From an uncultured Bacteroidales bacterium (GTDB lineage Bacteria > Bacteroidota > Bacteroidia > Bacteroidales > P3): a DNA stretch of 64,000 bases. Numbering within the stretch: position 1 is the stretch's first letter; every line of letters starts with the position of its first letter. Position numbers and translations under genes: made by a program. Under the pieces are notes generated by a model, which saw nothing but the letters and a program-made list of their open reading frames with translations, was not told the origin of the DNA and made no database searches. The stretch spans positions 1-64,000 of the forward strand of contig CALUMK010000002.1 of assembly GCA_944321735.1 (NCBI GenBank), read 5' to 3'. Below, piece after piece: positions 9,022 to 25,243 of this stretch.

Positions 9022-9092
9022 GGGCTTTCAAGAAGAGGGCCGGATCGGTTTCGGTCCGGCTGTCTTGTTGGTTTCATTGGTTTTGGTTGGAA

Positions 9093-9115
9093 GGGGGTCG
9101 CAAGGCCCCCTTTTT
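9093..9115 (+). terminator. Rho-independent terminator after the giant adhesin gene
   Basis: A 7-bp stem GGGGGTC / GGCCCCC closes a GCAA loop and is followed directly by TTTTT. A second weaker hairpin, GCCGGA / TCCGGC, lies just upstream at 9039-9060. Confidence 0.85.
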
Positions 9116-9147
9116 CGTATCCGCTCATGAGGGAAGGCGGATATGCT

Positions 9148-9155
9148 TACTTTTG
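9148..9155 (+). promoter_or_regulatory. Bacteroidetes -7 element for the LysR gene
   Basis: TACTTTTG matches TAnnTTTG exactly and lies 23 bases before the chosen ATG at 9178. It argues against the ATG at 9127, which would lie upstream of the transcript start. I see no clear TTTG at -33. Confidence 0.5.
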
Positions 9156-9177
9156 CAAGTGCATAGAGGGAGGCGCT

Positions 9178-10062
9178 ATGATAGACCATAAGTATAAAGT
9201 GTTTTACCAGCTGTGCTTGACACCGAGCACGACCGCGGCGGCCGATATCCTGGGCTTGACCCAGCCTGCCGTGTCCAAGAATGTAAGGGAATTGGAAAAA
9301 GAACTGGGGATAACCCTGTTCGGACGAACTCGGAACGGGATGGTGCTGACCGAAGCCGGGCAGGAACTGATGCATGGCATGGAGCCATTGATAGCGCAGG
9401 AGCGTTTGCTGCGATATCGTCTGGACCAATGGAGGGGAGTGGACAGGGGCGAGCTGAAAATAGGAGGGAGCACGACGCTTAGCCAGTATGTCTTGCCGGA
9501 TGCCATTGCCGGCTTTGCCCGGAAATGGCCGGATATTTCCTTGGGCTTGATGAGCGGCAATACCCAGCAGATAGAAGAAATGGTCCTGAATAAAAGCTTG
9601 CATGTGGCTTTTATCGAGGGGAATAAGAATAGGAACGACTTGCATTACGAACCCTTTCTCAAAGACGAGCTGGTTTTGGTGGCATCCGCTTCCGGACGAT
9701 GGCCTGGACGTATGGCAAAGGCGGAGCTGCCATCCGGATGTTTCGTATTCAGGGAGAGGGGCTCTGGTACCTACCATGTGATCCGCAAGAGGCTGGAACA
9801 AGAAGGAATCGACATCCGTCGGCTTGCATCGAAAGTCTGTATCGGTTCCACCGAAGCCATCAAACGGTATGTGGCCGGTTCCGATACGCTGGCCTTCTTG
9901 TCCCGTTACAGTATCCGGGAGGAATTGGCGCAGGAACGGTTACGAGTGATAGAGGTCGATGGACTTTGCATAGAAAGGATGTTCTATTCCATTCATCTGC
10001 AAGGTGAAATCGACCCCTATGCAGCTAGGTTCATGGATTTTTCCCGGAAAATGTTTCAATAG
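9178..10062 (+). CDS. LysR family transcriptional regulator
   Basis: 294 residues. Residues about 1-60 form the LysR winged helix-turn-helix (FYQLCLTPSTTAAADILGLT, QPAVSKNVRELEKELGITLF, GRTRNGMVLTEAG). Residues about 88-290 form the periplasmic-binding-protein-like effector domain. The start at 9178 is preferred over 9127 because it follows a purine-rich GAGGGAGG and lies just downstream of a TAnnTTTG promoter element. The next gene, convergent, encodes a YeiH-type transporter. In enterobacteria a LysR regulator (YeiE) lies next to yeiH, so I infer that this protein controls that transporter, probably in response to a sulfur-containing or anionic ligand. The ligand cannot be read from the sequence. 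Only 21 bases separate the two convergent stops. Confidence 0.9.
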   Translation: MIDHKYKVFYQLCLTPSTTAAADILGLTQPAVSKNVRELEKELGITLFGRTRNGMVLTEAGQELMHGMEPLIAQERLLRYRLDQWRGVDRGELKIGGSTTLSQYVLPDAIAGFARKWPDISLGLMSGNTQQIEEMVLNKSLHVAFIEGNKNRNDLHYEPFLKDELVLVASASGRWPGRMAKAELPSGCFVFRERGSGTYHVIRKRLEQEGIDIRRLASKVCIGSTEAIKRYVAGSDTLAFLSRYSIREELAQERLRVIEVDGLCIERMFYSIHLQGEIDPYAARFMDFSRKMFQ

Positions 10063-10083
10063 TTTTTCAGGCCTCTTGCCATT

Positions 10084-11220
10084 TCATAGGAAACGGGCCA
10101 ACAAGTAGCCGCCGCCTAATAGCCAGATGTAAAGCAGGGCGGCCAGCAAAAACGGCCGGGGACCGGCTTGCTTGAACTTGTCGAAGCTGGTATCGGTGCC
10201 GAGGGCGGTCATGGCCATGGTCAGCAGGAAAGTGTCGAAAGAGTTGATGAAGTTCACGCAACTGAGGGGAAGCAGATTCAGGGAATTGAAGCCGATGGCC
10301 GCTAAGAACAAGAAAGCGAACCAAGGCACGGTGATTCTGGCTTTCTGCTTGTGCGGCTTTTCTGCAGGTACTGCACTTTCCGTGGGGGCCGGAATGCTTG
10401 CGGTGGCTGGCCCGGCTTCGACCAGGTTCGCCTTGCCTGTGATGCCTGTTTGAATCGCCGCCTTGGCTTTCAGTCCCCGTATCGCCTGCCGGCTCGCCCA
10501 AAAGGCTAGGACTAGCAAGACCGGCACTAACAATATTACTCGCATCATCTTGACAATGATGGCTGTGTCTTCAACCTCTGCGCCCATGGCGTTCCCGGCC
10601 CCCACGACATGGGCCACTTCGTGCAGTGTGGATCCTGTATAAATACCCATCTGATGCTCATCCAGTCCGAGCAGGCCGCTGCGGTACAGGGCCGGATACA
10701 GGAACATCGAGATGGTCCCGAAAATGACAACTGTCGAGACGGCGACCGCTGTCTTGTACGCTTTGGGCTTGAGCGTGGCATCCGCCCCCAGCACCGCAGC
10801 GGCCCCGCAGATGGCACTCCCTACCGAAGTCAGCAGGGCGGTCTCCTTGTCCATTTTGAGCAGTTTCCCCAGCAGGCAGCCTAAGAGAATGGTTGTTGTG
10901 ACAATAATCGCATCAATCAGGATGGCAGTTCCTCCGACTTCAACGATATTCTGCAGCGTGAGCCTGAAACCGTAAAGGATGATGCCCAGCCGCAGGATTT
11001 GTTTGGAGCAGAATTTGATGCCGGGAACCCATGTCTCCGGCAAGCGGTTGCGGAGGCTGTTGGCATAGAGCATTCCAAGAAGAATCCCTATAATCAGCGG
11101 GCTGAATGAAATCTTCTGGAAGAAGGGGAATTGAGCAATGTAGAACGCGGCGCAGGAAAAGAGGGTGATGAGCAGGATACCGTGCAAGGTGTTGCCTTTC
11201 TGTTCGCTGAGTTTTACCAT
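10084..11220 (-). CDS. YeiH family putative sulfate/anion exporter
   Basis: 378 residues with about ten hydrophobic segments and no signal peptide. Sequence hallmarks of the YeiH / conserved-hypothetical-698 family are present: FSPLIIGILLGMLYAN near the N-terminus, LRLGIILYGFRLT, SAICGAAAVLGA and GSTLHEVAHVVGAGNA. Members are annotated as putative sulfate exporters. Some are linked to sulfonate (taurine, sulfoacetate) metabolism, but direct transport evidence is thin. A hydrophilic stretch (about 280-310, rich in Ala, Thr and Pro, with EKPHKQKARI) separates the last membrane segments and is longer than usual. The convergent LysR gene is its likely regulator. The 300 bases upstream are AT-rich and include the small dyad TATATAA / TTATATA at about 11323-11343. 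Confidence 0.85.
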   Translation of the reverse strand: MVKLSEQKGNTLHGILLITLFSCAAFYIAQFPFFQKISFSPLIIGILLGMLYANSLRNRLPETWVPGIKFCSKQILRLGIILYGFRLTLQNIVEVGGTAILIDAIIVTTTILLGCLLGKLLKMDKETALLTSVGSAICGAAAVLGADATLKPKAYKTAVAVSTVVIFGTISMFLYPALYRSGLLGLDEHQMGIYTGSTLHEVAHVVGAGNAMGAEVEDTAIIVKMMRVILLVPVLLVLAFWASRQAIRGLKAKAAIQTGITGKANLVEAGPATASIPAPTESAVPAEKPHKQKARITVPWFAFLFLAAIGFNSLNLLPLSCVNFINSFDTFLLTMAMTALGTDTSFDKFKQAGPRPFLLAALLYIWLLGGGYLLARFL

Positions 11221-11469
11221 GGTGTTGCTTTTTTAGGCGGAGGAAACGCCTGTAATGGTGGTTGTGTGTTGTTTTCTGGCGGCAAAGTACGGGATAAACT
11301 TCCGGTTTATAAAATTAAATGTTTTATGATATATAATAAAAAGTTATATAATACTGCCGGGATACAGGGGATGTTTGTCGGGATGAGGCTCTTTTATGGC
11401 GTTTTATACGGGTTTTGAGCCGGATGCCGTGGGCTTTAGCGAAGTTTTTTTAAATTTATGCGTTCAAGA

Positions 11470-11500
11470 TTTGGCGGGTTCGAAAATATTTGTACCTTTG
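11470..11500 (+). promoter_or_regulatory. Promoter of tRNA-Arg
   Basis: TTTG at 11470-11473, a 19-base spacer and TACCTTTG at 11493-11500 give a full Bacteroidetes sigma-ABfr type promoter. The tRNA begins 18 bases after it. Confidence 0.8.
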
Positions 11501-11518
11501 CAGTCCCGTTTCGGGAAT

Positions 11519-11592
11519 GGCGCCGTAGCTCAACTGAATAGAGCATCTGACTACGGATCAGAAGGTTGCGGGTTTGAATCCCTCCGGCGTCA
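11519..11592 (+). tRNA. tRNA-Arg (anticodon ACG)
   Basis: The 74-base cloverleaf can be drawn by hand: acceptor GGCGCCG pairs with CGGCGTC (one G-T), the D arm is GCTC...GAGC, the anticodon stem is TCTGA / TCAGA with loop CTACGGA (ACG at positions 34-36), the T arm contains GGTTTGAATCC, and the discriminator is A. The CCA end is not encoded. A promoter lies directly upstream and a terminator downstream, so it is a single-gene unit. Confidence 0.97.
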
Positions 11593-11619
11593 CAAAGTTT
11601 TCATAGTTTTAGTTTTTGT

Positions 11620-11651
11620 CCCCGTGTGATTCGCTCGCACGGGGCTTTTTT
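11620..11651 (+). terminator. Terminator after tRNA-Arg
   Basis: CCCCGTG ... CACGGGG forms the stem with an ATTCGCT-rich loop, followed by CTTTTTT. It closes the tRNA unit before the ferredoxin gene. Confidence 0.85.
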
Positions 11652-11757
11652 GTATCTTCGCATCCGTAAACATTCTGGAAAATCTCGTTCGCCTTTCAAC
11701 GAAAAGGAAATGCGGGTCTTTTGCAAGAACGCGGGAAGGCAACACAAACCTTGAATC

Positions 11758-12618
11758 ATGAAGAACGTCAAAGCTGTTTATTTCAGTGGCACGGGGACTA
11801 CGCAGAGAACCGTTTGCCATATAGCGCGGAAACTGGCGGAGCGTTTGTCGCTGCCTTTTTCGGAGGTGGATTTCACTTTGCCTTCCGGCCGGATGTCGCC
11901 TTTGGTCTTCGGCCCGGAAGACATAGTGGTGATGGGTACGCCGGTATATGCCGGGCGGATACCCAATGTCCTGCTCAAATTCTTGCAGACGATGCAGGGG
12001 ACGGGAGCGGTCGGGATTCCGGTGGTGCTTTACGGGAACCGGAACTACGACGATGCGCTGATTGAACTGCGGGACTTGATGGAGAATGCCGGCATCAGGA
12101 CGATGGCGGCGGCCGCCTTCATCGGGGAGCATTCTTTTTCGAAAATACTGGCCGCAGGCCGTCCGGACAAGCAAGACGAAGCCAAGATGGATGAATTCGC
12201 GGCTCTGGCAGCCGGGAAGATTGCCGAGGCCCATTTGCTGGACCAAGCCGTGCCTTCCGATTTCCCGCATCCTGTCTTTGTGGAAGGCGTGCCTTTCCCT
12301 TACCGGGGCTATTATACGCCTCGCGACCGGCATGGCAACGGCATCGACATACGTAAAGTCAAGTCGTTGGTGAACGACAAATGCACCGACTGCAAGACTT
12401 GCTCCGATGTCTGCCCGATGGGTTCGATCAGCCGGGATAACGTGCGGGAATATACAGGTATCTGCATCAAATGCGGGGCTTGCATCAAAAAATGCCCGGA
12501 AGGAGCCCGTTATTATGTGGATGAAGGCTACTTGTACCATCAGCATGAGCTGGAAGCGATGTACGGGGAACGCAGGGTCGAGCCGGCCTTTTTCCTGCAA
12601 CCGGGCGGGGCGGAATAG
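11758..12618 (+). CDS. EFR1-type protein: flavodoxin-like domain plus two 4Fe-4S clusters
   Basis: 286 residues, no signal peptide, so cytosolic. Residues 1-170 form a flavodoxin-like fold with the FMN phosphate loop near the start (YFSGTGTTQRT) and GTPVYAGRIPN. Residues 205-250 hold two ferredoxin motifs: CTDCKTCSDVCP from Cys209 and CIKCGACIKKCP from Cys236. Each has the CxxCxxCxxxC pattern for a 4Fe-4S cluster. This order is that of the EFR1 family ferredoxins, common in anaerobic gut and oral bacteria. They probably carry electrons between FMN and iron-sulfur centres; the partner is unknown. The gene stands alone between the tRNA terminator and a lipoprotein gene, and nothing nearby suggests a specific pathway. 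Confidence 0.88.
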   Translation: MKNVKAVYFSGTGTTQRTVCHIARKLAERLSLPFSEVDFTLPSGRMSPLVFGPEDIVVMGTPVYAGRIPNVLLKFLQTMQGTGAVGIPVVLYGNRNYDDALIELRDLMENAGIRTMAAAAFIGEHSFSKILAAGRPDKQDEAKMDEFAALAAGKIAEAHLLDQAVPSDFPHPVFVEGVPFPYRGYYTPRDRHGNGIDIRKVKSLVNDKCTDCKTCSDVCPMGSISRDNVREYTGICIKCGACIKKCPEGARYYVDEGYLYHQHELEAMYGERRVEPAFFLQPGGAE

Positions 12619-12704
12619 CAGTCTTTCGCCTTCTCGGCATGATGGAATCAGGACGGCGGATATAGGTATGCCATTGGAATCGAAATAAAGAAAAATTTGA
12701 AAAG

Positions 12705-13160
12705 ATGCGCAATAGCAAGAATGGGATAAGGCATCTCGGCCTTTTGTTGGTTGGGATGCTATGTTTTTCTTCCTGCCAAAGGGAAGTTACTGAAGTCTAT
12801 ACCTTCACTTTCGATGAGGATTTGTTCATTTCCGGAGGATGGTCTTCGGTGGGGATTACCAGCTCGTTCCTGAATACGGTGGGCTGGAGCGATGTGAAGA
12901 AATACGGCAACGAGGCCTATTCGGACAAAAATGCCCGCAAGGCCAATAAGGAAGCCGCCTTGGTGGACTTCGATTATAAGCTGGCCAATTTCGACAGGCG
13001 GCTTCCGTCCTTGTACGAGGAGTACCGTCTTGCCGGGGTCGATTCGGCTTCGGGTTCGGTGACATTGCGTCTTACTTGCATGAGCGACGAGGGGCAGATT
13101 GTCAAGGAGGCGAGTCGGGAAATCTTTTATGTGGCTCCGGCCGATACCGTCGCGCAATAG
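12705..13160 (+). CDS. Small lipoprotein, paralog of the one at 33709
   Basis: 151 residues. The N-terminus is a lipoprotein signal with lipobox-like LCFSSC, cysteine near residue 24, followed by QREVTEVYTFTFDEDLF. No family is recognised. The gene at 33709-34131 encodes a clear relative with the same order: SSC-(E/Q)(R/K)EV-x-x-(V/L)YTF near the cysteine, a middle segment with D.A..(D/S)KA..(A/Q)(N/Q) and a final segment RLPSLYEEYRLAGVDSASG matched by NLSSLYMYYGQQGVQSATG. It is probably exported to the periplasmic face of a membrane. The start follows an A-rich stretch typical of Bacteroidetes translation starts. Confidence 0.75.
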   Translation: MRNSKNGIRHLGLLLVGMLCFSSCQREVTEVYTFTFDEDLFISGGWSSVGITSSFLNTVGWSDVKKYGNEAYSDKNARKANKEAALVDFDYKLANFDRRLPSLYEEYRLAGVDSASGSVTLRLTCMSDEGQIVKEASREIFYVAPADTVAQ

Positions 13161-13232
13161 CCTCGCCATTGAGTATGCGGATGGCTGAATGCTGGAAAAG
13201 CCAAGGATATTTTGTACTTTTACATTCTCATC

Positions 13233-13339
13233 GGCGGAAAGGATCGACGGGTTGGTGTGAGTTAAAAGAGCCAAGGATGCCGTTGAGTGGCGGAAAGGCT
13301 CGACGGTTTGATGCGGATTGAAAGAGTCAAGGATGCCGT
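13233..13339 (+). repeat. Two tandem imperfect copies of a 56-bp unit upstream of udk
   Basis: The unit starts GGCGGAAAGG at 13233 and again at 13289 and ends AAGGATGCCGT in both copies. The copies differ at roughly ten positions. A fragment AAAGCCAAGGAT at about 13198 suggests a third, degraded unit. No reading frame is conserved between the copies. It occupies most of the leader before the uridine kinase gene. Confidence 0.7.
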
Positions 13340-13363
13340 GAAAAGAAAAACAGGATTGATAGT

Positions 13364-14020
13364 ATGCTGATAATCGGTATTGCCGGAGGTTCCGGTTCAG
13401 GTAAGACCACGGTGGTCAACAAGATTGCGGCCAATTGCGGCAGCAACTCGGTCACGATTATCCCGCAGGATGCCTATTACAAGGATAAGGGTGACTTGCC
13501 GGAGGAGGAAAAACGGGCCATCAACTTCGACCATCCCTCTTCCATCGAATTTCCGCTTCTGGTCAAGCATCTGGATATGCTCAAGAAAGGCTTGCCGATA
13601 GAGATGCCGGTGTATTCCTATATCACTTGCGCCCGTTCCAAGGAAACGGTGACGGTGTGTCCTACAGATGTGGTTATTGTGGAAGGTATTTTGATCCTGT
13701 CTAACCCGCAGCTTCGCAAAAGGTTGGATATTAAGGTTTTTGTGGATGCCGACAGCGACGACCGCTTGATGCGGATTATCTTGCGCGACATTCATGAGCG
13801 GAACAGGACTTACGAGCAGGCCTTGAGTCATTACGCGGATTGGGTCAAGCCGATGCATGAACAGTTCATAGAACCGACCAAGCGATATGCCGACATTATC
13901 GTGCCTCAGGGCGGGGAAAACGAGAAAGCCATCGGGATTATCAGTTCCCATTTGCATCGGTATATGCAGAAAGCAAAGGAAGAGAAAGGAAAAAATAAGA
14001 ACTCAAAGCAAAACGCATAA
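13364..14020 (+). CDS. udk: Uridine kinase
   Basis: 218 residues, cytosolic. It phosphorylates uridine and cytidine to UMP and CMP with ATP or GTP in pyrimidine salvage. The P-loop GGSGSGKTT is at 8-16, followed by IPQDAYYKD, the INFDHPSSIEF motif typical of uridine kinases, VVIVEGILIL and the lid region RIILRDIHERNRT. Length matches the family (about 205-215), with an extra Lys/Asn-rich tail (KEEKGKNKNSKQNA). The stop lies 12 bases before the next gene, suggesting one transcript with the H1-PurL-like gene, porW and polA. A second kinase domain of the same superfamily is present in the protein at 47888-49588, so the strain has two such enzymes. Confidence 0.93.
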   Translation: MLIIGIAGGSGSGKTTVVNKIAANCGSNSVTIIPQDAYYKDKGDLPEEEKRAINFDHPSSIEFPLLVKHLDMLKKGLPIEMPVYSYITCARSKETVTVCPTDVVIVEGILILSNPQLRKRLDIKVFVDADSDDRLMRIILRDIHERNRTYEQALSHYADWVKPMHEQFIEPTKRYADIIVPQGGENEKAIGIISSHLHRYMQKAKEEKGKNKNSKQNA

Positions 14021-14032
14021 AAGCAAATTCCT

Positions 14033-16870
14033 ATGACAACAGAATCCAAACCCAAGAAAAGGCCCGCTTCCAAGGCATCGGCCAGCAAGAAGGAGGCGGA
14101 AAAGACTAATTCCAAACAGGAAAAAGCGGTCAAGGCACTGCGTGTAGCCAAAGACCGTGTAGAGAAAGCCGCCGTGGATGCCAAGAAGAAGGTCAAGGCG
14201 GTGAAGGAACAGATTGACACGGAAGAAAACCGCACCAAGGTGAAGGCGGCGGCCCGGCTTTCCCGGATGAAAGCGGGTAAGGCTAAGGACAAGGCGGAGA
14301 CCTTGCTTCAAAAGGCCAAGGCCAAGGCGGAAGAAGTGGCAGGTCAGATGGAAAAAGCGGCTAAGGGGCATCCTAAGGCCGAGGCGGCTTTGAAACAGGC
14401 CAAAAAAGCCAAGGCCAAGGTAGAAGCGGCAGGCGAAAAGTTGAAATCGGTAAAGGAAACCGTAGCGGAGCAAGGAAAGAAGGCACGGAAAGCGACCAAG
14501 GAAGCCGTAGGCAAGACGAAATCTACGGTTGACAAGGCAGTGAAGACGGCCAAGAAATTCAAGGATACGGTGGATACGCCGGAAAACCGGGCCAAGGTCA
14601 AGGATGCGGCTTATTCGATAGGCAGCAGTTTGAAAGAAGCTGTAAGCGATGTGGTCAAGGAGGTGGCCAAATCGAGGACCGCCAGCAAGGCCAAATCCAA
14701 GACAGGCAAGTCTGCGGCGGCCAAACCGGCAAAGCCCAAAGCGACGAAGCCGGTTTCGAAAGCGGCACCGGCCAAGGCGGCAGCCAAGACCACGAAGGCG
14801 TCTGCTACCAAGGCCAAGCCCAAGGCGACAAAGGCGACAGCTAAGTCGACAGCAGCCAAGCCGGCTCAAGGAGGGCGTGCGGAGGAAGATGTGACCGAGC
14901 TTACGGCCAAGGAGCTGGGGTTGTCTTTCGATGAATACGGGCGGATTTGCCAGCTTCTTGGCCGAAATCCTAATTTTACGGAATTGAGCTTCTACGCTCG
15001 GATGTGGAGCGAGGAGGTTTCTTATAAGAATTCGTTTAAATGGCTTAGGGCTTTTCCTGCGGGGGGGGATTCCCTGCGGCCTCAGGAAACGGCAAGTGAT
15101 GCGCATGGGGTGGATCTTGGGAACGGGGAGGCTTGTGTCTTGAAAGTGGAAGCCGGTCTGTCCGCTTCCGAGGAAGAATCGGAAAAGGAAATCCTGTCCC
15201 GTTTGGATATGACGCTCATGGCCGAAGGAGCGCGGCCTGTTCTTTCCTCTGTTTTGCAATCGGAGGGTTTGGAATCGGAAACAAACCGTGTCTTCTGTCG
15301 GTTCGAGGGTGATTCTTATCGGCACAATACTGGGTTCAACGGGGAAAAACCGCTTTCCGTGCAGGAGCAAAAGGGGATGCCGTTTCGGGATTTCTTGTCT
15401 GTGGGTGTTGTGCCTGCGGGTTTCCGCTTGGAAAAAGAAACTCCCGGAAAGGGGGATTCGTTTTACTTGATTGTCCTGCCCGAAGGTCTTTCCCGGGCCG
15501 AGCAATGGCAAATGAGCCGTTCCTTGCTTGAGGACAAGGCTGTGCTTGCATTGACGGCCATCGGCCGTTCGGGTTTGGTCGGCGCGCTTGTCAGGCTTTG
15601 CGGTCAGGCCGGCATCGGGGGACGGATTGATTGTTCCCACGATTGGATGGAAGGCAAAGAGGTTTGGGAATCCATGACATCCCGAATACCGGGATGTTAT
15701 CTTGCTGCGGTTCGCCGGAAAGAGGGAGCGCCGGGTCTGAAAGTTTCGAAAGCGGCGGTGTATCCGATAGGAGAAGCGATTTCCGAGAATTGTTTGCAAT
15801 GCCTTGAAAAAGAGAAGGTCCGGGTCGATATTCCTGTTTCGAGTCTGGTTGTCGGGCAGGGGACGCCGGTTTACGACCTCAAATACAAGGAAGCCAAGAA
15901 TTTTGCCCAATGCAAACGTTTCGATATCCATACGGTAAAAGACATCGATTTGGAGGAAGCGGTCGAGGTAGCTCGTTTTCTGGCCAAGGAGACAGGATCC
16001 GTTTTCGGAATTTCGGAGGCTTTTCGTGCCGGTTCTGAAAATGCAGAGGAATCCATGGTGTTGACGATGGGCGGTAATGCGGCTTATTTGTTTGCCAATC
16101 CCTTGGCTGGTGCCCAAATCGCAGTGGCTGAAGCGGGGCGTATTCTGGTTTGTACCGGTGCCAATCCTCGATGCATAGCGTCCTGTCTGCATTTCGGGAC
16201 ACCCCAGAATCCGGAAGCTTACTGGCAGTTTGTCAGTGCTGTGAAAGGCTTGAAGACGGTTTGCGAGAGCTTGCGGCTGCCAGTGGCCGGGCTTGATTCG
16301 CGTTTTGCGAAACCTGCCGATTCCAAGCTTGATACGGGGAATCCGGCGATGGTCGTGGGGATGATTGGCTCTTTGGACAGTGGCAAGCGGCTGAGCCGAG
16401 GCTTTGCTCAGAAAGGCCATGCGATATACCTGCTTGGAAAATGCGTGGAAGATATCAATAGTTCGCGTTATCTGTCGGCATACCGCAAGCAAGCTTATTC
16501 CCCGGCACCGTATTTTAACCTGGAAGAAGAGTACAAGTTGCAGCGCGTGCTGCTCGATGCGATTGATTCGCATTTGCTGGAGTCGGCTTGTCCGGTAACG
16601 GAAGGCGGTTTGTTCATGGCTTTGATCGAAAGCGCCAAGCTCAATAATCTTGGCTTCGATATCATGGTGGATGATTCTTTCCGTCTGGATTCCTACTTGT
16701 TCGGGGAAAGCCAGGGCCGTGTCGTGGTGACGATTGATGCCGCGGTGGATACCGAATTCAAGGATTTGATGATGGAGACAAAGACGCCGATGGTGTGCTT
16801 GGGAGAAGTGACAGGCGGAGAGATTCTGGTGGACGACTGCGATTTTGGAAAGATAGAAGATTACAAGTAA
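14033..16870 (+). CDS. Lys/Ala-rich histone H1-like region fused to a degenerate PurL (FGAM synthase-like) domain
   Basis: 945 residues. Residues 1-282 are Lys/Ala/Thr-rich with histone H1-like repeats (KPAKPKATKP, TKAKPKATKATA) and an internal duplication: IDTEENRTKVKAAA at 61-74 and VDTPENRAKVKDAA at 180-193. Residues 285-945 follow the order of small-type PurL: ELGLSFDEYGRI, LGRNPNFTELSFYARMWSE, then VAEAGRILVCTGANP, VTEGGLFMALIES and LFGESQGRVVV. Key catalytic motifs are altered. The family MWSEHCSYK reads MWSEEVSYK (324-332), ESHNHP reads EAGLSA (373-378), and the GAATGVGG glycine loop is gone. I infer a pseudoenzyme that kept the AIRS scaffold and may bind DNA or RNA through its basic tail. 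Adjacent genes are udk and porW. Product names transferred automatically as PurL should be doubted. Confidence 0.75.
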   Translation: MTTESKPKKRPASKASASKKEAEKTNSKQEKAVKALRVAKDRVEKAAVDAKKKVKAVKEQIDTEENRTKVKAAARLSRMKAGKAKDKAETLLQKAKAKAEEVAGQMEKAAKGHPKAEAALKQAKKAKAKVEAAGEKLKSVKETVAEQGKKARKATKEAVGKTKSTVDKAVKTAKKFKDTVDTPENRAKVKDAAYSIGSSLKEAVSDVVKEVAKSRTASKAKSKTGKSAAAKPAKPKATKPVSKAAPAKAAAKTTKASATKAKPKATKATAKSTAAKPAQGGRAEEDVTELTAKELGLSFDEYGRICQLLGRNPNFTELSFYARMWSEEVSYKNSFKWLRAFPAGGDSLRPQETASDAHGVDLGNGEACVLKVEAGLSASEEESEKEILSRLDMTLMAEGARPVLSSVLQSEGLESETNRVFCRFEGDSYRHNTGFNGEKPLSVQEQKGMPFRDFLSVGVVPAGFRLEKETPGKGDSFYLIVLPEGLSRAEQWQMSRSLLEDKAVLALTAIGRSGLVGALVRLCGQAGIGGRIDCSHDWMEGKEVWESMTSRIPGCYLAAVRRKEGAPGLKVSKAAVYPIGEAISENCLQCLEKEKVRVDIPVSSLVVGQGTPVYDLKYKEAKNFAQCKRFDIHTVKDIDLEEAVEVARFLAKETGSVFGISEAFRAGSENAEESMVLTMGGNAAYLFANPLAGAQIAVAEAGRILVCTGANPRCIASCLHFGTPQNPEAYWQFVSAVKGLKTVCESLRLPVAGLDSRFAKPADSKLDTGNPAMVVGMIGSLDSGKRLSRGFAQKGHAIYLLGKCVEDINSSRYLSAYRKQAYSPAPYFNLEEEYKLQRVLLDAIDSHLLESACPVTEGGLFMALIESAKLNNLGFDIMVDDSFRLDSYLFGESQGRVVVTIDAAVDTEFKDLMMETKTPMVCLGEVTGGEILVDDCDFGKIEDYK

Positions 16871-16923
16871 ATTATAACACGCCCTTGAAAGCAACGTGGA
16901 ATAGAGCCTGGCTGAGGCTGGGT

Positions 16924-19665
16924 ATGTGCAAGTTCTTCTTTTTTGGCATGGCGGCCTGTTTGCTGTTATTGGCAGCAGGCTGTTCTACCAAAAAGAATAC
17001 GTTTCTGAGCCGAAACTTTCATAATCTGACCTCTTACTACAACGTTTATTGGAACGGGAAGGAAACCTTGCTCGATGCCGATTATCTGCTGCAAGATCAG
17101 TCTGTGGACAATTACTTCAACGTGATTCCGGTTTTCAAGTACGGGAATCCGGCAGATACGTCCCTGATAGCCGAGCAGACTAAAAGGATGATAGAGAAGG
17201 CTTTAATTACTATTAAGAAGCATTCGATTTCCATTCGGGGCAAGGAATACGTCAAGACGATAGATGATGCCTATATCCTGTTGGGCAAGGGGTTCTTTTA
17301 TCAGCAAGACTATTCCAAAGCCCGTTCCGTTTTCAATTTCGTGTTGTCCGAATACCCTAAGAATCCGGAAAGGTTCGAGGCGATGTTGTGGATTGCCAGA
17401 ACCTATATGCGTGAAGGCGAGTACGGCATGGCCTCTTCGTTTATCAGTCAAGTGGAAGCTCAGCCCCAGTCTTCGTTGATGAAAGAGACATTTCGCGATT
17501 TGCCTCTGGTTCAGGCTCAGTTCAATATCCAGCAGGAGAAGTACAAGGAGGCTATTCCTTTTTTGCAGCAAGGGTTGCAACGGGCCAAGGATGTGGATAT
17601 GAAGTCGCGGATTATCTTCATTCTAGGGCAGATTGCACAGAATGACGGGGATAAGGCAAAGGCTGTTAACTATTATCGGGAATGTTTGAAGCTGAATCCT
17701 CCTTTGGATTTGGTTTTCAACGCCCGGCTGAATATTGTATTGTGTTCGGAAGGTAATTCCGTGGCCATGCATGATGTGCTGAAGGATTTGCAGAAGATGT
17801 TGAAAGATCCCAAGAATGCGGCTTATTTCGGGCGTATCTATTACGTGATGGGAGAGATGGCATTCCGCCAAGGCCGGGAAGAGGATGCTGTAAGGTATAT
17901 GGATCAGTCTATTGCGGCGAGTCAGGGGGATCCGGCTAGGACATTGTTGGCCGCCAAACGTTTGTCTGCCTATTTTTATGGCAAGAAAGAGTATATCCGT
18001 TCACAGCAGTATTATGCGGCGGCGGCCGAGGTGGTGGAAATGGATGATCCTGACTACTATACGATTGTAAGCAGAGCCAAAAATCTGGAAGATTTGACGG
18101 GCTATTATACCCAGCTGACAGAAGCGGACACCCTGCGGATAGTGGGTCGGATGGATGAGAAAGATCAGAAGAAGTACGCGGAGCGTAAGGCCAAGGAATA
18201 CCAAAAGGCGCAAGAAGCAGCTCGTTTGGCTCGGGAGCAATCAGGCGGCACGGACATGTCCACTCCGGGGCGTTCCAATTGGTATTTTTACAATGCGCAG
18301 ACCAAGAATGCCGGTTTGGCTGAATTTAATCGTTTATGGGGGCGCAGGACATTGGAAGACTTATGGTTTCTGTCCGCCAAGCCGGCGGCGGCCATGCTTC
18401 GTCCTCCATCGCAAACGGGGGATGACGAGGAAGTGGCAGAAGCTCCCAAGATTATCACGCAGGCGAATCCTGAGTATTATTTGCAGAATCTGCCTACTAC
18501 GGATAGCGCATTCGCTCGTTTGGATTCCATCATTGAGCCGGCGCTGTATCATGTGGGCATGGTGTATTCGGATCAGTTGAGCGAGAATGAGGAAGGAAAG
18601 AAATACCTGGTTCGTTTGATTGAGGAATTCCCCGCATCGGATTATATTCCATCGGCTTGCGAGACACTTTGCAAGATTTTTCATCAAGAGGGGGATTTGG
18701 TTAATTACCAGAAGTATTCCGGTATCCTGGCAAGCCGGTATGCTGGGACGATTCAGGATCAGCGTGTGAATAATCCAAATTATTACAAGGATTTGGAGGC
18801 AAATTCCCAGACGGTGGAGTCTTTGTACACGCAGGCGTATAATTGCTTTTTAAGAAATGATTTTCAGGGAGTTTTGGCTATTGTGAACCAAGTAGAGGAA
18901 GAATTTCCCATTAATACTTTTCAGGAGCAGTTGTCCTTTTTGAAAACAATGGCGACCGCTCATGTGAAAGGGTATAACGATATGATTCCGATGGCAGATA
19001 ATTTCATGAAATCCTACCCGGAAAGTGAGCTGAAATCGCGGATGCAGTCTGCATACGATCGGGCTCAGTCGGATTTGAAAAAGAATATCCTGTTTCCCGA
19101 TTCCGATCCGGTACTGCCGGAGGACATGCCATTGCCTCAATCTTCAAGCGAGTCCTCGTTGGCAGAAGGTTCGGGAAAGACGGACGGCTCTGTCTCGGAG
19201 GCTGGGACCGGTCCTTCGGACGAGGGGGAAGCTTCTGTTGTGGCGGATGCATCTCTGGTAGTACAGGATACGATGCCCTCAGAACCCGTTCATGTGGAAT
19301 ATGTACTGCCGAAAAGCGCGGAAAAGCATAGTATTATTATGGTTTGCGACCCCGAGGAGCGGGAACCGGATGTAATGCTTTTGCGCGTGGCAGAGTTTAA
19401 CAAGCGGCATTACGGTCAAACGGATTTATCGGTAGAAACTGTGCAGGCTGGCGAGAGGTATATGGTCGTTGTCTCTTCGTTCCCGGTTTTGCGTGGGGCA
19501 ACGAATTATCTGAATATGATAAAGTCGGATGATTATGTTTTAGGCACATTGGAATACAAATTGCTTTTCCTGGCCAATGAGGCCAATGTGGAATTGTTGA
19601 AGGAGTATGGGGATTACGAAGGGTACGATGCTTATTACAAGGAAACTTATAATGTGAAGGATTAG
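16924..19665 (+). CDS. porW: T9SS accessory lipoprotein PorW/SprE, TPR-rich
   Basis: 913 residues. The start at 16924 gives a compact lipoprotein signal, MCKFFFFGMAACLLLLAAGC, with the lipobox LAAGC; upstream in-frame codons overlap the previous gene and would not. The mature N-terminus CSTKKNTFLSRNFHNLTSYY, followed by NVYWNGKE, is the signature of the SprE/PorW family. Tetratricopeptide repeats run from about 110 to 400 and again near 560-720. The C-terminal part has a Ser/Glu-rich linker followed by a compact domain (about 820-913). Family knowledge: PorW links the GldK/PorN ring and the outer-membrane translocon and is needed for T9SS secretion in Porphyromonas and for gliding in Flavobacterium. 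The other core genes are 35 kb away at 54681-60529, which is usual for this gene. Confidence 0.9.
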   Translation: MCKFFFFGMAACLLLLAAGCSTKKNTFLSRNFHNLTSYYNVYWNGKETLLDADYLLQDQSVDNYFNVIPVFKYGNPADTSLIAEQTKRMIEKALITIKKHSISIRGKEYVKTIDDAYILLGKGFFYQQDYSKARSVFNFVLSEYPKNPERFEAMLWIARTYMREGEYGMASSFISQVEAQPQSSLMKETFRDLPLVQAQFNIQQEKYKEAIPFLQQGLQRAKDVDMKSRIIFILGQIAQNDGDKAKAVNYYRECLKLNPPLDLVFNARLNIVLCSEGNSVAMHDVLKDLQKMLKDPKNAAYFGRIYYVMGEMAFRQGREEDAVRYMDQSIAASQGDPARTLLAAKRLSAYFYGKKEYIRSQQYYAAAAEVVEMDDPDYYTIVSRAKNLEDLTGYYTQLTEADTLRIVGRMDEKDQKKYAERKAKEYQKAQEAARLAREQSGGTDMSTPGRSNWYFYNAQTKNAGLAEFNRLWGRRTLEDLWFLSAKPAAAMLRPPSQTGDDEEVAEAPKIITQANPEYYLQNLPTTDSAFARLDSIIEPALYHVGMVYSDQLSENEEGKKYLVRLIEEFPASDYIPSACETLCKIFHQEGDLVNYQKYSGILASRYAGTIQDQRVNNPNYYKDLEANSQTVESLYTQAYNCFLRNDFQGVLAIVNQVEEEFPINTFQEQLSFLKTMATAHVKGYNDMIPMADNFMKSYPESELKSRMQSAYDRAQSDLKKNILFPDSDPVLPEDMPLPQSSSESSLAEGSGKTDGSVSEAGTGPSDEGEASVVADASLVVQDTMPSEPVHVEYVLPKSAEKHSIIMVCDPEEREPDVMLLRVAEFNKRHYGQTDLSVETVQAGERYMVVVSSFPVLRGATNYLNMIKSDDYVLGTLEYKLLFLANEANVELLKEYGDYEGYDAYYKETYNVKD

Positions 19666-19733
19666 GCCTGTGTGCACGTCTTGCTGGGGAATGTAGGGAA
19701 GAAAAGCGAGGAATGGCAATGGGAAGAGAGAAA

Positions 19734-22700
19734 ATGGAAGAGAAAAAATTGTTTTTATTGGATGCGATGGCTTTGATTTACAGGGCATATTTTGCTCTGA
19801 ACAAGAATCCCCGCATCACCTCCAAGGGCGTGAACACTTCGGCGTTCCTGGGGTTCGCCAATGCTTTGCTCGATTTGTTGAAGAAAGAGAAGCCCACCCA
19901 TCTTGGGGTGGCTTTCGATACGATGGCTCCTACGGCCCGGCATCTGGAGTTTACTGATTACAAGGCAAACCGGGAGAAGATGCCCGAAGACATCTCGGTG
20001 GCCATTCCTTATATCAAGAGGCTCTTGCAGGCTTTGAATATCCCGATTCTGTATGCGGAGGGCTATGAGGCCGATGATGTGATTGGAACGCTGAGCAAGA
20101 AGGCGGAAAAAGAGGGTTTCAAGGTCTATATGGTGACTCCTGACAAGGATTTCGGGCAATTAGTGGATGAGAATGTGTTGATCTATAAGCCGTCCCGTTC
20201 AGGAAACGGGGTGGAAATCATGGGCGTTGCCGAGGTCTGCGCCAAATTCGGCATCGAGCATCCTTGGCAGGTCATCGATATGTTAGGGTTGTGGGGGGAC
20301 GCATCGGACAATATTCCGGGAGTGCCCGGAGTGGGGGAAGTGACGGCTCGCAAGCTGCTGGCCCGCTTCGGCTCGATGGAGAACCTGTTGGAACATGTGG
20401 ACGAGGTGGAGAACGAGAAGCTGCGCGAGAAGATTCGTCAGAACGCGGCCCAGGCGAGGGAGTCTAAGATGCTGGCTACGATTATCTTGGATGCTCCGGT
20501 TCCATTCGACGAGGAAGGTTTGCGTTTGTCTGCCCCGGATATCAAAGCCGTATCGGAACTTTTAGATGAATTGGAGATGCGTTCGTTTGCTGGCCGCCTG
20601 TTGTCCTATTATCGGCTGGAAGCCCCCTTGAGCCAGCAGACAGAAGCGAAGCCAGCAGCAAAGACGGGCAGGAAAAAAGCGGAGGTTCAGGATACAACCT
20701 TGGATATGTTTTCCGAGGAGGCGATGATAGAGGAGAAGCCTTTTGTTTGTCTGGATTTGAATGGGGTGGAATATTGGAAGGACGAAGCCGGGTTGAAGGC
20801 GGGATTGGAAGACCTTTCGAAGATGTTGGAAGAAGGGGCTGACGAGGGTGGAAAGCCGCGTATGGTGGCCGGTTTTTACCTGATGCCGGTCTCGGCAGCT
20901 TCGATACGGCATTCGGCCATCGCCTGCATGGCGTTTTGCGTTTTGGAAAATGCGGCAGAGCCTGTTGTGGGGGAAAATTCGGAAACTGCGGGGATGGGAG
21001 AAAAGGTGGTGTCTGCGGCTAAGGTTCGTTTGTGGGCCTATTATATTCCGTCCTGTTTTGCCGGAGCGAGGCCGGAAACGGCTTCGGATGCTCGTTTGGA
21101 CGAAGCGGGCAGATTCCCGTTGACTTCCGATGAAAAGGAAGTGTTGGCTGCGTTTTTGAGCCGGCATGCCGGAAGCCGGAATTTGGTCTGCCATGATTTG
21201 AAGAACCAGATGCATCTGCTGGCGAACCAAGGAATCGAATTGGAATTGCAGGCATTCGACATCATGTTAGCGCATTACCTGATGGATCCGGAAGGCAGCC
21301 ACGATTTGATGCGCATGACCCGTAATTACCTGCCTTTCTCCTATCAGGATGCGCCTGAGCCGGAACTTTTATCCGCCTTGACGGCATCTTCTGCCGGTTT
21401 ATTGGAAACAGAGGCTCTCTGGGCCGACCCGGAGAATCCGTTGCGGAGCGAGGCCGTCCGGTATTCGTTGCAGAATGCCAAGGTGGCGTGCCTGTTGCAG
21501 GAATGTTTCAAGCCGGAATTAGAGCGTGTGGAGGCAGGGGGCTTGTTCTGGAATGTGGAGATTCCCTTATCGCGGGTGCTGTGCCGGATGGAGCGCGTGG
21601 GGGTCAAAATCGATACGGGACGGCTGAAACAATACGGGGATGCCCTTCAGGCTCAGATAAGCCAGGTGGAGAATGAAATATACGGTTTGGCAGGGGAAAA
21701 GTTCAATATCGCTTCCCCCAAGCAGTTGGGAGAAGTGCTGTTCGAGAAATTGCAGATTACAGACAAGCCCAAGCATACGCGGACCAAGCAGTTCAGCACG
21801 GCCGAGGATGTGTTGCAAAAGCTGACTCACAAGCATCCGATTGTGGAGAAGGTGCTTTTTTACCGCAGCTTGACCAAATTGAAATCCACCTATGTGGATG
21901 CGCTGCCTCTGCTGATAGACCCTTGGACGGGTAAGATACATACTACCTACAATCAGGCGGTGACGGCTACCGGGCGTTTGAGTTCGCAGAACCCGAATTT
22001 GCAGAATATCCCGGTTCGGACCGATTTGGGTCGGGAAATCCGCAAATGCTTTGTTCCGGAACAGGAAGGCGAGAGCTTGCTTTCGGCCGATTATTCGCAG
22101 ATAGAATTGCGGATTATCGCCCATCTGAGCGAGGACAAGACCATGTTGCAGGATTTCGGCAAGCATAAGGACGTGCATACGGCCACGGCGGCCAATGTCT
22201 TTGGCGTGAAGCCGGAGGAAGTGACGCCGGCCATGCGCCGTCAGGCCAAGACGGTCAATTTCGGCATCATCTACGGCATCTCGGCTTTCGGGCTTGCCGA
22301 ACGGCTTCAGATTCCGCGCAAGGAGGCGGCGGATTTGATTGAGAGGTACTACCGGAATTACGGCCAGCTGAAGGCCTATATGGAAAAGGTGGTGGCCGAT
22401 GCCAAGGAAAAAGGTTATGTGGAGACCTTGCTGCACCGTCGGCGTTACCTGAAGGATATCAATTCGGGCAATGCTGTGGTTCGGGCTTACGCCGAGCGCA
22501 ATGCGGTGAACGCCCCGGTGCAGGGGTCGAGTGCGGATATGATCAAATTGGCCATGATTGCCATCGACCGGCGGATCCGTCAGGAGAAGATGGCTTCGCG
22601 GATGATTCTGCAAGTGCATGACGAACTGGTTTTCAACGTGCCGGGTTCGGAAGTGGAAAGACTGGCGGCTTTGGTGGAAAAAGAGATGAAGGAGGCTTTG

Positions 22701-22763
22701 CCGATGCGGGTGCCGGTGGAGGTGGAGGTGTGTGCGGCGTCCAATTGGCTCGATGCCCATTAG
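19734..22763 (+). CDS. polA: DNA polymerase I, proofreading site apparently lost
   Basis: 1009 residues from the ATG at 19734, which is preceded by GGAAGAG; an in-frame ATG at 19713 is also possible. Residues 1-290 are the 5'-3' exonuclease (LLDAMALIYRAYFAL, YEADDVIGTL, TPDKDFGQLV, DNIPGVPGVGEVTA). The polymerase domain is intact: LLSADYSQIELRI with Asp786, RRQAKTVNFGIIYGIS, and HDELVF with Asp963. The middle 3'-5' exonuclease domain is present but its metal ligands are not visible. There is no FDTET motif, the GQNLKYD segment reads CHDLKNQ, and the GEDADVT segment reads LQNAKVA. A long linker rich in Ala and Glu replaces the first motif. It fills Okazaki gaps and acts in repair. Last gene of the udk-porW run; its stop codon abuts a REP-like repeat. 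Confidence 0.95.
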   Translation: MEEKKLFLLDAMALIYRAYFALNKNPRITSKGVNTSAFLGFANALLDLLKKEKPTHLGVAFDTMAPTARHLEFTDYKANREKMPEDISVAIPYIKRLLQALNIPILYAEGYEADDVIGTLSKKAEKEGFKVYMVTPDKDFGQLVDENVLIYKPSRSGNGVEIMGVAEVCAKFGIEHPWQVIDMLGLWGDASDNIPGVPGVGEVTARKLLARFGSMENLLEHVDEVENEKLREKIRQNAAQARESKMLATIILDAPVPFDEEGLRLSAPDIKAVSELLDELEMRSFAGRLLSYYRLEAPLSQQTEAKPAAKTGRKKAEVQDTTLDMFSEEAMIEEKPFVCLDLNGVEYWKDEAGLKAGLEDLSKMLEEGADEGGKPRMVAGFYLMPVSAASIRHSAIACMAFCVLENAAEPVVGENSETAGMGEKVVSAAKVRLWAYYIPSCFAGARPETASDARLDEAGRFPLTSDEKEVLAAFLSRHAGSRNLVCHDLKNQMHLLANQGIELELQAFDIMLAHYLMDPEGSHDLMRMTRNYLPFSYQDAPEPELLSALTASSAGLLETEALWADPENPLRSEAVRYSLQNAKVACLLQECFKPELERVEAGGLFWNVEIPLSRVLCRMERVGVKIDTGRLKQYGDALQAQISQVENEIYGLAGEKFNIASPKQLGEVLFEKLQITDKPKHTRTKQFSTAEDVLQKLTHKHPIVEKVLFYRSLTKLKSTYVDALPLLIDPWTGKIHTTYNQAVTATGRLSSQNPNLQNIPVRTDLGREIRKCFVPEQEGESLLSADYSQIELRIIAHLSEDKTMLQDFGKHKDVHTATAANVFGVKPEEVTPAMRRQAKTVNFGIIYGISAFGLAERLQIPRKEAADLIERYYRNYGQLKAYMEKVVADAKEKGYVETLLHRRRYLKDINSGNAVVRAYAERNAVNAPVQGSSADMIKLAMIAIDRRIRQEKMASRMILQVHDELVFNVPGSEVERLAALVEKEMKEALPMRVPVEVEVCAASNWLDAH

Positions 22764-22886
22764 CGGCGTGTGATAATGGGCGATCTGCGGCGTTGCCTTC
22801 GGGATTCGGACTCGGTCACGTACTAGAGTACGCTCCCTCGTCCTCACCCTTGGCGGCCTTGCATCTCGCCCATTCTGACACGCCGC
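22763..22886. repeat. REP-like palindromic repeat, copy 1, at the polA stop codon
   Basis: 124 bases bounded by GCGGCGTGTGATAATGGGCG and its near inverted complement ending TCTGACACGCCGC (22874-22886). The centre holds the perfect palindrome CGTACTAGAGTACG. Its reverse complement carries the same landmarks in the same order as the copies at 42636 and 41155: GGCAAGATGCAAGGC-like, GGGAGCNTACT, GTATGTGACCGA-like and AACGCNGCAGATNGCC. The first base is the last base of the polA stop codon, so it may act as a terminator or mRNA end structure. Confidence 0.75.
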
Positions 22887-23005
22887 TCCGGCGCGCAAGG
22901 AGGGTCGGGGAATTCGGATGCTGTCCGTTGCGATGTTGTGGAGGATGCTCGTTCTGACACGTCGCCCCGGCGCGAGGAGGGAGGACGGGCGAGTCGGCTG
23001 CCGTT
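22871..23005. repeat. Direct duplication of the repeat edge
   Basis: A segment beginning TTCTGACACG and running through CCGGCGCG, AGGAGGG and a GTCGG occurs at about 22873 and again, diverged, at about 22952, a period of 79 bases. It overlaps the end of the REP-like copy and fills the rest of the gap before the PASTA gene. Confidence 0.5.
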
Positions 23006-23065
23006 GATTTGAAGCCTCGGATTGCGTGTAAAATGTGAGATAGAATAAAACTTAAAACAAGAACG

Positions 23066-23734: not shown

Positions 23735-23835
23735 TGGGCAAAAAAAATGCCTTTCAGCGCATTTCTGAGGAAGTTGAGATAGAGCGAAAAAGGAATTTGG
23801 GATTCGGCCGGGGCTGGATTTTGGCGGATTCCTGA
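23734..23835 (+). CDS. Possible 33-residue small protein overlapping the PASTA stop codon
   Basis: The sequence TGATG joins the stop of the PASTA gene to a new ATG, and the frame continues for 33 codons (MGKKNAFQRISEEVEIERKR, then NLGFGRGWILADS) before TGA. Stop-start overlap favours coupled translation. It has a basic start and no membrane segment. There is no recognised family and no independent evidence that it is expressed. It ends 14 bases before the rluD start. Confidence 0.3.
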   Translation: MGKKNAFQRISEEVEIERKRNLGFGRGWILADS

Positions 23836-23849
23836 AATCAGAAACAAGA

Positions 23850-25145: not shown

Positions 25146-25172
25146 GCATGGCCTCGGCCTATCTGTGTATGG

Positions 25173-25203
25173 TTTCGTGAGTCATGCAGATCAGCTATCT
25201 TAG
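25173..25203 (+). promoter_or_regulatory. Promoter of the amidase-like secreted protein gene
   Basis: TTTC, a 19-base spacer and TATCTTAG fit the TTTG / TAnnTTTG pattern with one mismatch in each box. It lies 40 bases before the ATG at 25244 and downstream of the ATG-like codon at 25184, so it supports the later start. Confidence 0.45.
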
Positions 25204-25243
25204 CGCGACAAAGGAAAACAAGAGTGGAATAAAGATAAACATC

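What the first reader, a model, noticed from the sequence alone, without database searches (positions are those of the whole stretch)
14033..16870. Histone H1-like tail fused to a catalytically degraded PurL
Residues 1-282 are Lys/Ala-rich with an internal duplication; residues 285-945 follow small-type PurL order but lose the catalytic His in MWSEHCSYK (reads MWSEEVSYK), the ESHNHP motif and the GAATGVGG loop. A purine-synthesis scaffold joined to a nucleic-acid-binding tail is an unexpected combination. It may be a pseudoenzyme with a nucleoid, regulatory or nucleotide-sensing role, and it lies between udk and porW. It also risks being misnamed FGAM synthase.
Basis: partly seen in the sequence, partly recalled or inferred. 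Interest (0 to 1): 0.7.

Follow-up and report, generated by a model that had tools for sequence, protein, structure and literature searches.

The report
Dead purine enzyme kept for parts
This bacterium carries the remains of an old purine-making enzyme whose active sites are gone but whose last domain is still under selection, fused to a positively charged tail; related bacteria have kept the same leftover domain, probably several times over, after another enzyme took over the job, which suggests a second, unknown function.

Summary
In detail: window 14033-16870 encodes 945 aa, a Lys/Ala-rich tail (1-284) joined to a small-type PurL without the catalytic His, ESHNHP, the GAATGVGG loop and the second-half nucleotide motifs. 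It is an in-place relic. Of 13 genomes of the genus, nine have PurS, PurQ and intact small purL; four, including this one, have a full-length large PurL, no PurS or stand-alone PurQ found, and this degraded gene. Decay is uneven: the C-terminal AIRS_C domain (B2) has dN/dS 0.06-0.19, close to neighbouring genes, the tail 0.12-0.21, the first catalytic domain 0.36-0.66 or saturated. Relics turned up in 12 groups of Bacteroidales, among them linker + B2 (at least 68 of 79 genomes of one genus), B2 alone, or B2 fused to MenG; one possible relic without B2 (G044) was left out. Stand-alone PurQ in seven carriers lacks its nucleophile Cys. The tail resembles a Lys/Ala-rich gene between udk and purL in congeners; for the window that rests on position and composition. 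Best reading: a selected pseudoenzyme that acts by binding.

The parts
14033..16870 (+). whole gene (945 aa + stop): K/A-rich tail fused to degraded small-type PurL
   Evidence: full-length in the congeners G001 (928 aa) and G011 (945 aa), shorter tail in G009 (816 aa)
14033..14884 (+). Lys/Ala-rich basic tail, residues 1-284; structure not predicted
   Evidence: composition; dN/dS 0.12-0.21 in the three pairs among G000/G001/G011; no Pfam match
14216..14254 (+). first copy of DTxENRxKVKxAA motif in the tail (residues 62-74)
14573..14611 (+). second copy of the motif (residues 181-193)
14885..15043 (+). PurL linker domain, residues 285-337; catalytic His replaced by Glu at residue 328 (15014-15016)
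   Evidence: Pfam PF18072 over cut-off; alignments
15044..15502 (+). eroded A1 (first AIRS) domain, residues 338-490; ESHNHP and GAATGVGG gone. Domain borders are approximate and set by eye
15503..15952 (+). B1-like region, residues 491-640, divergent
   Evidence: weak AIRS_C match at 15503-15787; dN/dS
15953..16402 (+). A2 (second AIRS) domain, residues 641-790; nothing aligns to the YEQYDSMVG segment, GGNVSFYN lost
   Evidence: Pfam PF00586
16403..16867 (+). B2 (C-terminal AIRS_C) domain, residues 791-945: the best conserved part
   Evidence: Pfam PF02769; dN/dS 0.06-0.19; present in the 34 degraded relatives scored
13364..14020 (+). udk, uridine kinase, upstream neighbour, 12 nt away
   Evidence: NCBIfam PRK05480 over cut-off
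16924..19665 (+). porW/sprE, type IX secretion lipoprotein, downstream neighbour (likely ATG at 16924, own reading of the lipobox)
   Evidence: NCBIfam NF052312 over cut-off; sequence

Best explanation
It is a selected pseudoenzyme made in place from the small PurL subunit. Shown by sequence: in this sub-clade a large one-chain PurL is present where congeners have the PurL/PurQ/PurS type; PurS and stand-alone PurQ are no longer found; the small purL gene stayed between udk and porW, lost the motifs of both nucleotide sites, and kept its C-terminal B2 domain under strong purifying selection, with a conserved basic tail in front. Shown in relatives: B2 is the part common to the relics classed here. 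Inferred: the protein works by binding. The B2 domain holds a partner, most likely another protein, and the Lys/Ala tail anchors the molecule to nucleic acid or another polyanion, so the two together act as an adaptor. The partner is not identified; the large PurL (regulation or recruitment, as inactive viral FGARATs do with the cellular enzyme) and MenG (fused to B2 in one family) are the leading candidates.
For: Displacement: of the 13 genomes of the genus, 4 (G000, G001, G009, G011) have a large PurL of 1234-1242 aa, no PurS hit and no stand-alone PurQ hit, and 9 have PurS, stand-alone PurQ, no large PurL and an intact small PurL (47-48 of 48 motif residues). The order udk-purL-porW-polA is the same in the window and 8 congeners, 3 degraded and 5 intact. 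The four large PurLs sit beside that of another family (G057, f22), SH-aLRT 100, in a tree of 25, consistent with transfer; all 25 keep the glutaminase Cys. Selection: B2 dN/dS 0.06-0.19 over six pairs, porW 0.07-0.11, polA 0.10-0.16, A1 region 0.36-0.66 or saturated. Recurrence: 34 degraded proteins score 1-38 of 48 motif residues against 41-48 for 45 intact ones; PurS is found in 0 of 34 and 39 of 45 of those genomes. In a 295-genome search the small-PurL type of B2 stands apart: 100 genomes at E<=7e-27, everything else at 2.7e-13 or weaker. Minis under selection: B2 dN/dS 0.04-0.15 in five close g3 pairs; of two wider ones, 0.18 and saturated. PurQ of seven carriers lacks the nucleophile Cys, 7 of 7, while 4 of 4 controls keep it.
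Against: No stand-alone PurQ was detected in the window's own genome. dS is high or saturated in many pairs, so dN/dS is rough. 'B2 is what survives' is partly built into the searches: relics were found with a PurL profile and a B2 profile, and G044 of f9 has a 420-aa protein that matches the B1 half and gave no B2 match; it was left out. The PurS contrast is not perfect: G019, G020, G030, G184, G214 and G338 have intact small PurL without a PurS hit; G042 has PurS, intact small PurL and a partial large PurL; G094 has small PurL, PurS and large-PurL fragments. The other 195 of 295 genomes show no small-PurL-type B2, so the function is dispensable or replaced there, or the relic is beyond detection.
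Confidence: 0.6

Rival explanations
1. Regulatory pseudo-subunit of purine synthesis: the relic still docks on the large PurL (or on a PurQ-like relic) and tunes it.
For: 22 of 26 genomes tested have the relic together with a large PurL of the E. coli kind; of the other four, three (f104) hold a different ~1000-aa PurL and were not classed as relics, and G044 has only a weak, divergent match. PurQ relics are kept beside PurL relics in f8, f75, f80 and f93. Inactive viral FGARATs recruit the cellular enzyme (PMC5691659, passage read).
Against: The most reduced forms keep only B2 (139 and 188 aa), whereas the glutaminase contact described in the passages read of PMC3815217 is made by A2 loops. 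In genus g3 the long PurL matches the large-PurL model only weakly, yet the mini is kept.
Confidence: 0.25
2. Position effect: the reading frame is kept because its translation drives the downstream genes (translational coupling to menG or porT).
For: In f73 (3 of 3) and in G370 of f9 the relic overlaps menG by one base, in G273 the gap is 6; in f93 it is fused to MenG in 3 of 3.
Against: In the window the gap to porW is 53 nt. In the 20 g3 loci read, neither menG, porT nor porW is among the three frames on either side. Conservation is at amino-acid level with high or saturated synonymous change and covers the domain, not only its 3' end.
Confidence: 0.1
3. A decaying pseudogene on its way out.
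For: A1, B1 and A2 diverge fast, with deletions; 195 of 295 genomes show no small-PurL-type B2.
Against: Open frame in all four congeners although synonymous distance in the A1 region is about 1 or more; 153 random codons would be free of stops with a chance of about 6e-4 (61/64 to the power 153, own arithmetic). B2 and tail evolve not much faster than neighbouring genes; minis are seen in at least 68 of 79 genomes of g3.
Confidence: 0.1
4. Still an enzyme, with a rebuilt active site or a new reaction of the AIR-synthase superfamily.
For: The AIRS and AIRS_C domains are recognisable in the second half.
Against: Both sets of ligand motifs are gone and the replacements differ between the four congeners; g3 minis lack the A domains.
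Confidence: 0.04

Closest known systems
Small-type PurL, FGAM synthase subunit II (TIGR01736 / NF002290)
   Same: Direct ancestor: same domains, same gene place in congeners, linker and AIRS/AIRS_C domains recognisable
   Different: Catalytic His, ESHNHP, GAATGVGG, YEQYD, GGNVSFYN and the Asp of DGG lost; PurS and stand-alone PurQ not found in the genome; far under the family cut-offs
Gammaherpesvirus vFGARAT tegument proteins (ORF75 family; TIGR01739)
   Same: PurL-derived proteins; those that lost enzyme activity can recruit the cellular FGARAT to another protein (PMC5691659, passage read)
   Different: Viral; that they derive from the large one-chain form is recalled; the window protein gave no TIGR01739 match at E<=1
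Histone H1-like / Hc1-type Lys/Ala-rich bacterial proteins (recalled)
   Same: Composition: about a quarter Lys and a quarter Ala, net charge +50
   Different: No Pfam match for the tail even at E 1; tail is fused to a PurL remnant; DNA binding untested
PDX1.2-type pseudoenzyme of plants (PMC6829848, start of abstract seen in the listing)
   Same: Non-catalytic relative of an enzyme, kept and regulatory
   Different: Here the active enzyme is a distant form that appears to have come in from elsewhere, not the product of a duplication

Membership tests
Small-type PurL as an enzyme (FGAM synthase II) | Whole-protein score over the curated family cut-off | tested here: not met
   251.1 vs 648 bits and 227.4 vs 525.75 bits
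Small-type PurL as an enzyme (FGAM synthase II) | Catalytic His of MWSEH and the ESHNHP / GAATGVGG motifs | tested here: not met
   Glu at residue 328; both motifs absent. That these residues are catalytic is recalled knowledge
Small-type PurL as an enzyme (FGAM synthase II) | PurS and PurQ partners encoded in the genome | tested here: not met
   No PurS hit; the only PurQ hit is inside the large PurL. Genome 94.67% complete
Small-type PurL as an enzyme (FGAM synthase II) | Descent from small PurL | tested here: met
   Pfam domains over cut-off; synteny with intact orthologs; the B2 tree groups it with intact PurL of its genus and of G020, 100/99
Small-type PurL as an enzyme (FGAM synthase II) | FGAM synthase activity | not testable with these tools
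   Needs complementation or assay
Histone H1 / Hc1 | Match to a curated Pfam model | tested here: not met
   No family at E<=1 for the tail
Histone H1 / Hc1 | Nucleic-acid binding | not testable with these tools
   -
Gammaherpesvirus vFGARAT (TIGR01739) | Match to the family model | tested here: not met
   Not among the matches of the window protein at E<=1; weak matches under cut-off for some relatives

The most novel reading that the evidence does not exclude
Small PurL of Bacteroidales already carried a second, non-catalytic function in its C-terminal AIRS_C domain. When large PurL displaced the enzyme in several lineages independently, that domain was kept and the rest was stripped, down to a 139-aa one-domain protein, while in some lineages PurQ became a pseudo-amidotransferase beside it. 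In the window's lineage the domain was wired to a basic tail that came from a neighbouring nucleic-acid-binding gene, giving a new adaptor.
Probability: 0.35. Interest if true: 0.86.

Novelty: new variant of a known kind. Interest (0 to 1): 0.72.

Why it matters
It shows a textbook purine enzyme being displaced while its remains are kept, in many lineages of one order of bacteria, with graded forms from nearly intact to a single domain. This makes a hidden second function of small PurL directly testable, exposes proteins that can be named PurL or PurQ in databases although they should not catalyse, and matters for metabolic models that count such genes as enzymes.

Tried and rejected
Rejected: a frameshift or chimera artefact (same open frame in G001 and G011, degraded ortholog in G009). 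A duplicate of an active small PurL in the same genome: the AIRS_C search of the genome gave six matches, two in the large PurL, two in this gene, and two in loci that are SelD and ThiL by NCBIfam. H1 homology of the tail by Pfam model or solved structure (best E 0.047, ribosomal uL13). Sequence homology of the window tail with the stand-alone K/A genes: not above shuffled composition (1.9 sd for G007, 1.3 sd for G002); only the G005 tail is clearly homologous to them (16 and 10.6 sd). Against the 118-aa tail of G004 the signal is mixed: 6.4 sd for G001, 2.8 for the window, 1.3 for G011. Family f104 (G251, G433, G350) was first fetched as degraded and then dropped: a different ~1000-aa PurL with a separate PurQ. 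G044 (B1-half match, no B2) was dropped from the motif table and trees. G023 and G202 were dropped from the B2 tree for want of an anchor match. Promoter and terminator scans gave nothing clearly above chance (4 vs 2.2 and 7 vs 5.9 expected).

Literature: ten searches of the held open library; I saw listings and starts of abstracts, and passages of PMC10912719, PMC3815217, PMC5811070 and PMC5691659. None of what I saw describes PurL-derived pseudoenzymes in bacteria; subscription papers are not held. One search was useless because 'port' is a common word. Residue roles in PurL, the A1/B1/A2/B2 naming and the catalytic Cys of PurQ rest on recalled knowledge except where a paper is cited.
Full report
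What is there. Window 14033-16870 (+) is one open frame of 945 codons. Residues 1-284 are Lys/Ala-rich (25% and 23%, net +50). The rest aligns with small-type PurL: linker, AIRS and AIRS_C domains over the Pfam cut-offs, but only 251.1 and 227.4 bits against NCBIfam cut-offs of 648 and 525.75. Aligned to the intact congener G007 it keeps 9 of 48 residues in six ligand-type motifs; the catalytic His is Glu, ESHNHP and the GAATGVGG loop are gone, nothing aligns to YEQYDSMVG, GGNVSFYN reads GLDSRFAK and HDVSDGGL reads CPVTEGGL. So the motifs of both halves are broken. The choice of motifs and their roles rest on recalled knowledge of PurL.

It is the ortholog of an intact enzyme, in place. Own genome and 60 relatives were searched with the protein, large PurL, PurS and PurQ. 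In the genus (13 genomes including the window's) four have a large PurL of 1234-1242 aa and no hit for PurS or stand-alone PurQ; nine have PurS and PurQ, no large PurL, and a small PurL with 47-48 of 48 motif residues. The order udk - purL - porW - polA is the same in the window and in eight congeners (G001, G011, G009 degraded; G005, G004, G007, G010, G002 intact); G012 shows purL - porW - polA up to its contig end, and G003, G006 and G008 were not looked at for porW. In a tree of 25 large PurLs the four of this genus group together (SH-aLRT 88) beside the one of G057 from family f22, support 100, within a clade with f3 and f20, which fits a transfer into this sub-clade.

The tail. In four congeners (G002, G006, G007, G010) a separate Lys/Ala-rich frame of 188-242 codons lies between udk and purL, and in three more (G003, G008, G012) the end of such a frame overlaps the purL start as TAATG (the rest lies beyond the fetched stretch). 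In G005 a 325-aa tail homologous to these genes (16 and 10.6 sd over shuffles) is in frame with an INTACT small PurL, and G004 has a 118-aa tail on an intact PurL. Fusion and loss of catalysis are therefore separate events. For the window the descent of the tail from that gene is inferred from place and composition only: its similarity to the stand-alone genes is at the level of composition, although the tails of G000, G001 and G011 are clearly homologous to each other (52-73 sd).

Selection. Pairwise dN/dS over the four degraded congeners, six pairs: B2 0.06-0.19; tail 0.12-0.21 over the three pairs among G000, G001 and G011 (over only 44-46 codons against G009 it is 0.25 once and saturated twice); linker 0.26-0.49; A1 region 0.36-0.66 or saturated; B1 0.26-0.58 or saturated; A2 0.19-0.34. 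Neighbours: udk 0.03-0.10, porW 0.07-0.11, polA 0.10-0.16. Synonymous distances are large, so these are rough. The A1 region is not free of constraint, only much less constrained than B2.

The same thing elsewhere. In 149 genomes of the family, genus g3 (79 genomes) has no PurS hit, and at least 68 of 79 (the printed list is cut) have a frame, mostly 260-335 codons and up to 627, that matches only the C-terminal part of the profile. Twenty of these were read: all have the linker domain and B2, with at most a short piece matching between them. In 295 genomes of the order a B2 profile gives 100 genomes at E<=7e-27, then a gap to 2.7e-13 and weaker for large PurLs and others. Of the 100, 69 have PurS. 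Of the 31 without PurS, 23 carry forms that I class as degraded (families f1, f8, f9, f11, f17, f30, f36, f73, f75, f80, f93; with genus g3 of f1 counted apart, 12 groups); three of the other eight were read and are intact (G184, G214, G338) and five were not read. The 22 degraded genomes among 26 tested have a large PurL: 20 in one long match, one in two matches of one frame (G369), one split over two contigs (G372). Motif scores fall in steps: f8 34-38, f30 28-29, f17 22, all others 17 or lower, against 41-48 for 45 intact proteins. The f8 proteins still have His and ESHNHP and may be early cases. On a tree of B2 (64 rows, two dropped; bootstrap not settled) the degraded label needs 9 changes, 7-10 in bootstraps, of which 3 are forced by well-supported branches: repeated loss is likely, its number uncertain.

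What survives. Over 46 aligned proteins of carriers the columns kept in at least 90% include GGLF, GxDI, FLFGE and LGxxT. f9 has proteins of 139 and 188 aa with B2 alone (two genomes); f73 keeps A2 and B2; f93 has an unmatched N-terminal part, B2 and then MenG/UbiE in one frame, in 3 of 3 genomes. The third f9 genome, G044, has a 420-aa protein that matches the B1 half and no B2, so survival of B2 is a strong tendency and not a rule, and the searches themselves lean to B2. In many families outside g1 the gene lies in purL - menG - porT, intact or not (PorT confirmed by model for two examples and MenG for one), so a place beside secretion genes is not special to the relic. Five close pairs of g3 minis have B2 dN/dS 0.04-0.15; two wider pairs give 0.18 and saturation.

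PurQ. Seven stand-alone PurQ-like proteins from carriers in f8, f75, f80 and f93 have Gly, Asn or Gln for the nucleophile Cys of GICNGF (7 of 7), while four PurQs of PurS-bearing relatives keep it; the seven were those that happened to show, not a full survey. Three of five tested still pass the PurQ cut-off of TIGR01737. The 25 large PurLs read keep their Cys. So in those families both subunits look dead as enzymes and both are kept.

Mechanism. Shown by sequence: displacement, loss of both sites, uneven constraint, repeated survival of B2. Inferred: action by binding. B2 is the piece to which a partner should bind; the tail, by its charge, is likely to hold nucleic acid or another polyanion. 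Viral FGARATs that lost activity recruit the cellular enzyme (PMC5691659, passage read), which makes the large PurL a candidate; the fusion in f93 makes MenG another. In Salmonella PurL the contact with the glutaminase domain described in the passages read of PMC3815217 is made by loops of A2, so PurQ is not an obvious partner of B2 alone.

Against. No partner, fold or expression is known. PurS is missing by search in six genomes with intact PurL (G019, G020, G030, G184, G214, G338), and G042 and G094 hold both systems or parts of them, so the contrast is strong and not absolute. The window genome is 94.67% complete. 195 of 295 genomes of the order show no small-PurL-type B2.

Verdict. It is best read as a relic of small PurL under selection for a non-catalytic task, one case of a pattern repeated in the order. 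Not found in print in the searches listed under Tried and rejected.

Noticed in passing
window 9000-25500 against L054 (G011): Mosaic: per 300 nt, window and G011 are 98-100% identical over 9.0-12.3 kb and mostly 93-100% over 19.8-25.5 kb (one bin 83%), but only 55-88% between about 12.3 and 19.8 kb and about 75% at 8.4-9.0 kb, pointing to exchange of DNA between strains.
   Followed up: partly
L089:3966-6584, L090:4720-7296, L091:4573-7167: In family f93 the PurL relic is fused in one frame to MenG/UbiE methyltransferase in all three genomes sampled.
   Followed up: partly
L132-L138: Seven PurQ-like proteins without the nucleophile Cys, the three f8 members also with PQPER for PHPER; pseudo-amidotransferases that can be named PurQ.
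   Followed up: partly
L058:10702-11397, L060:6909-7451: Stand-alone Lys/Ala-rich genes between udk and purL in congeners, no Pfam family over its cut-off.
   Followed up: partly
genome G000: The AIRS_C search of the window's genome shows the large PurL, this gene, SelD and ThiL but no PurM, which should carry the domain too (recalled); a gap in the assembly or a real absence.
   Followed up: no
L067:6382-7650 (G044, f9): A protein of about 420 aa matching only the B1 half of small PurL, no B2-type match: a different kind of remnant.
   Followed up: no
window 11519-11593: tRNA-Arg(ACG); likely explains the island of 96% DNA identity with G001 at 11465-11696.
   Followed up: yes
window 22787-22898: A stretch of about 112 nt after polA matches three copies spaced 185 nt apart in G001, a possible tandem repeat there.
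   Followed up: no
genomes G042, G094: PurS plus small PurL together with a partial or fragmented large PurL: an early stage of displacement or contamination.
   Followed up: no
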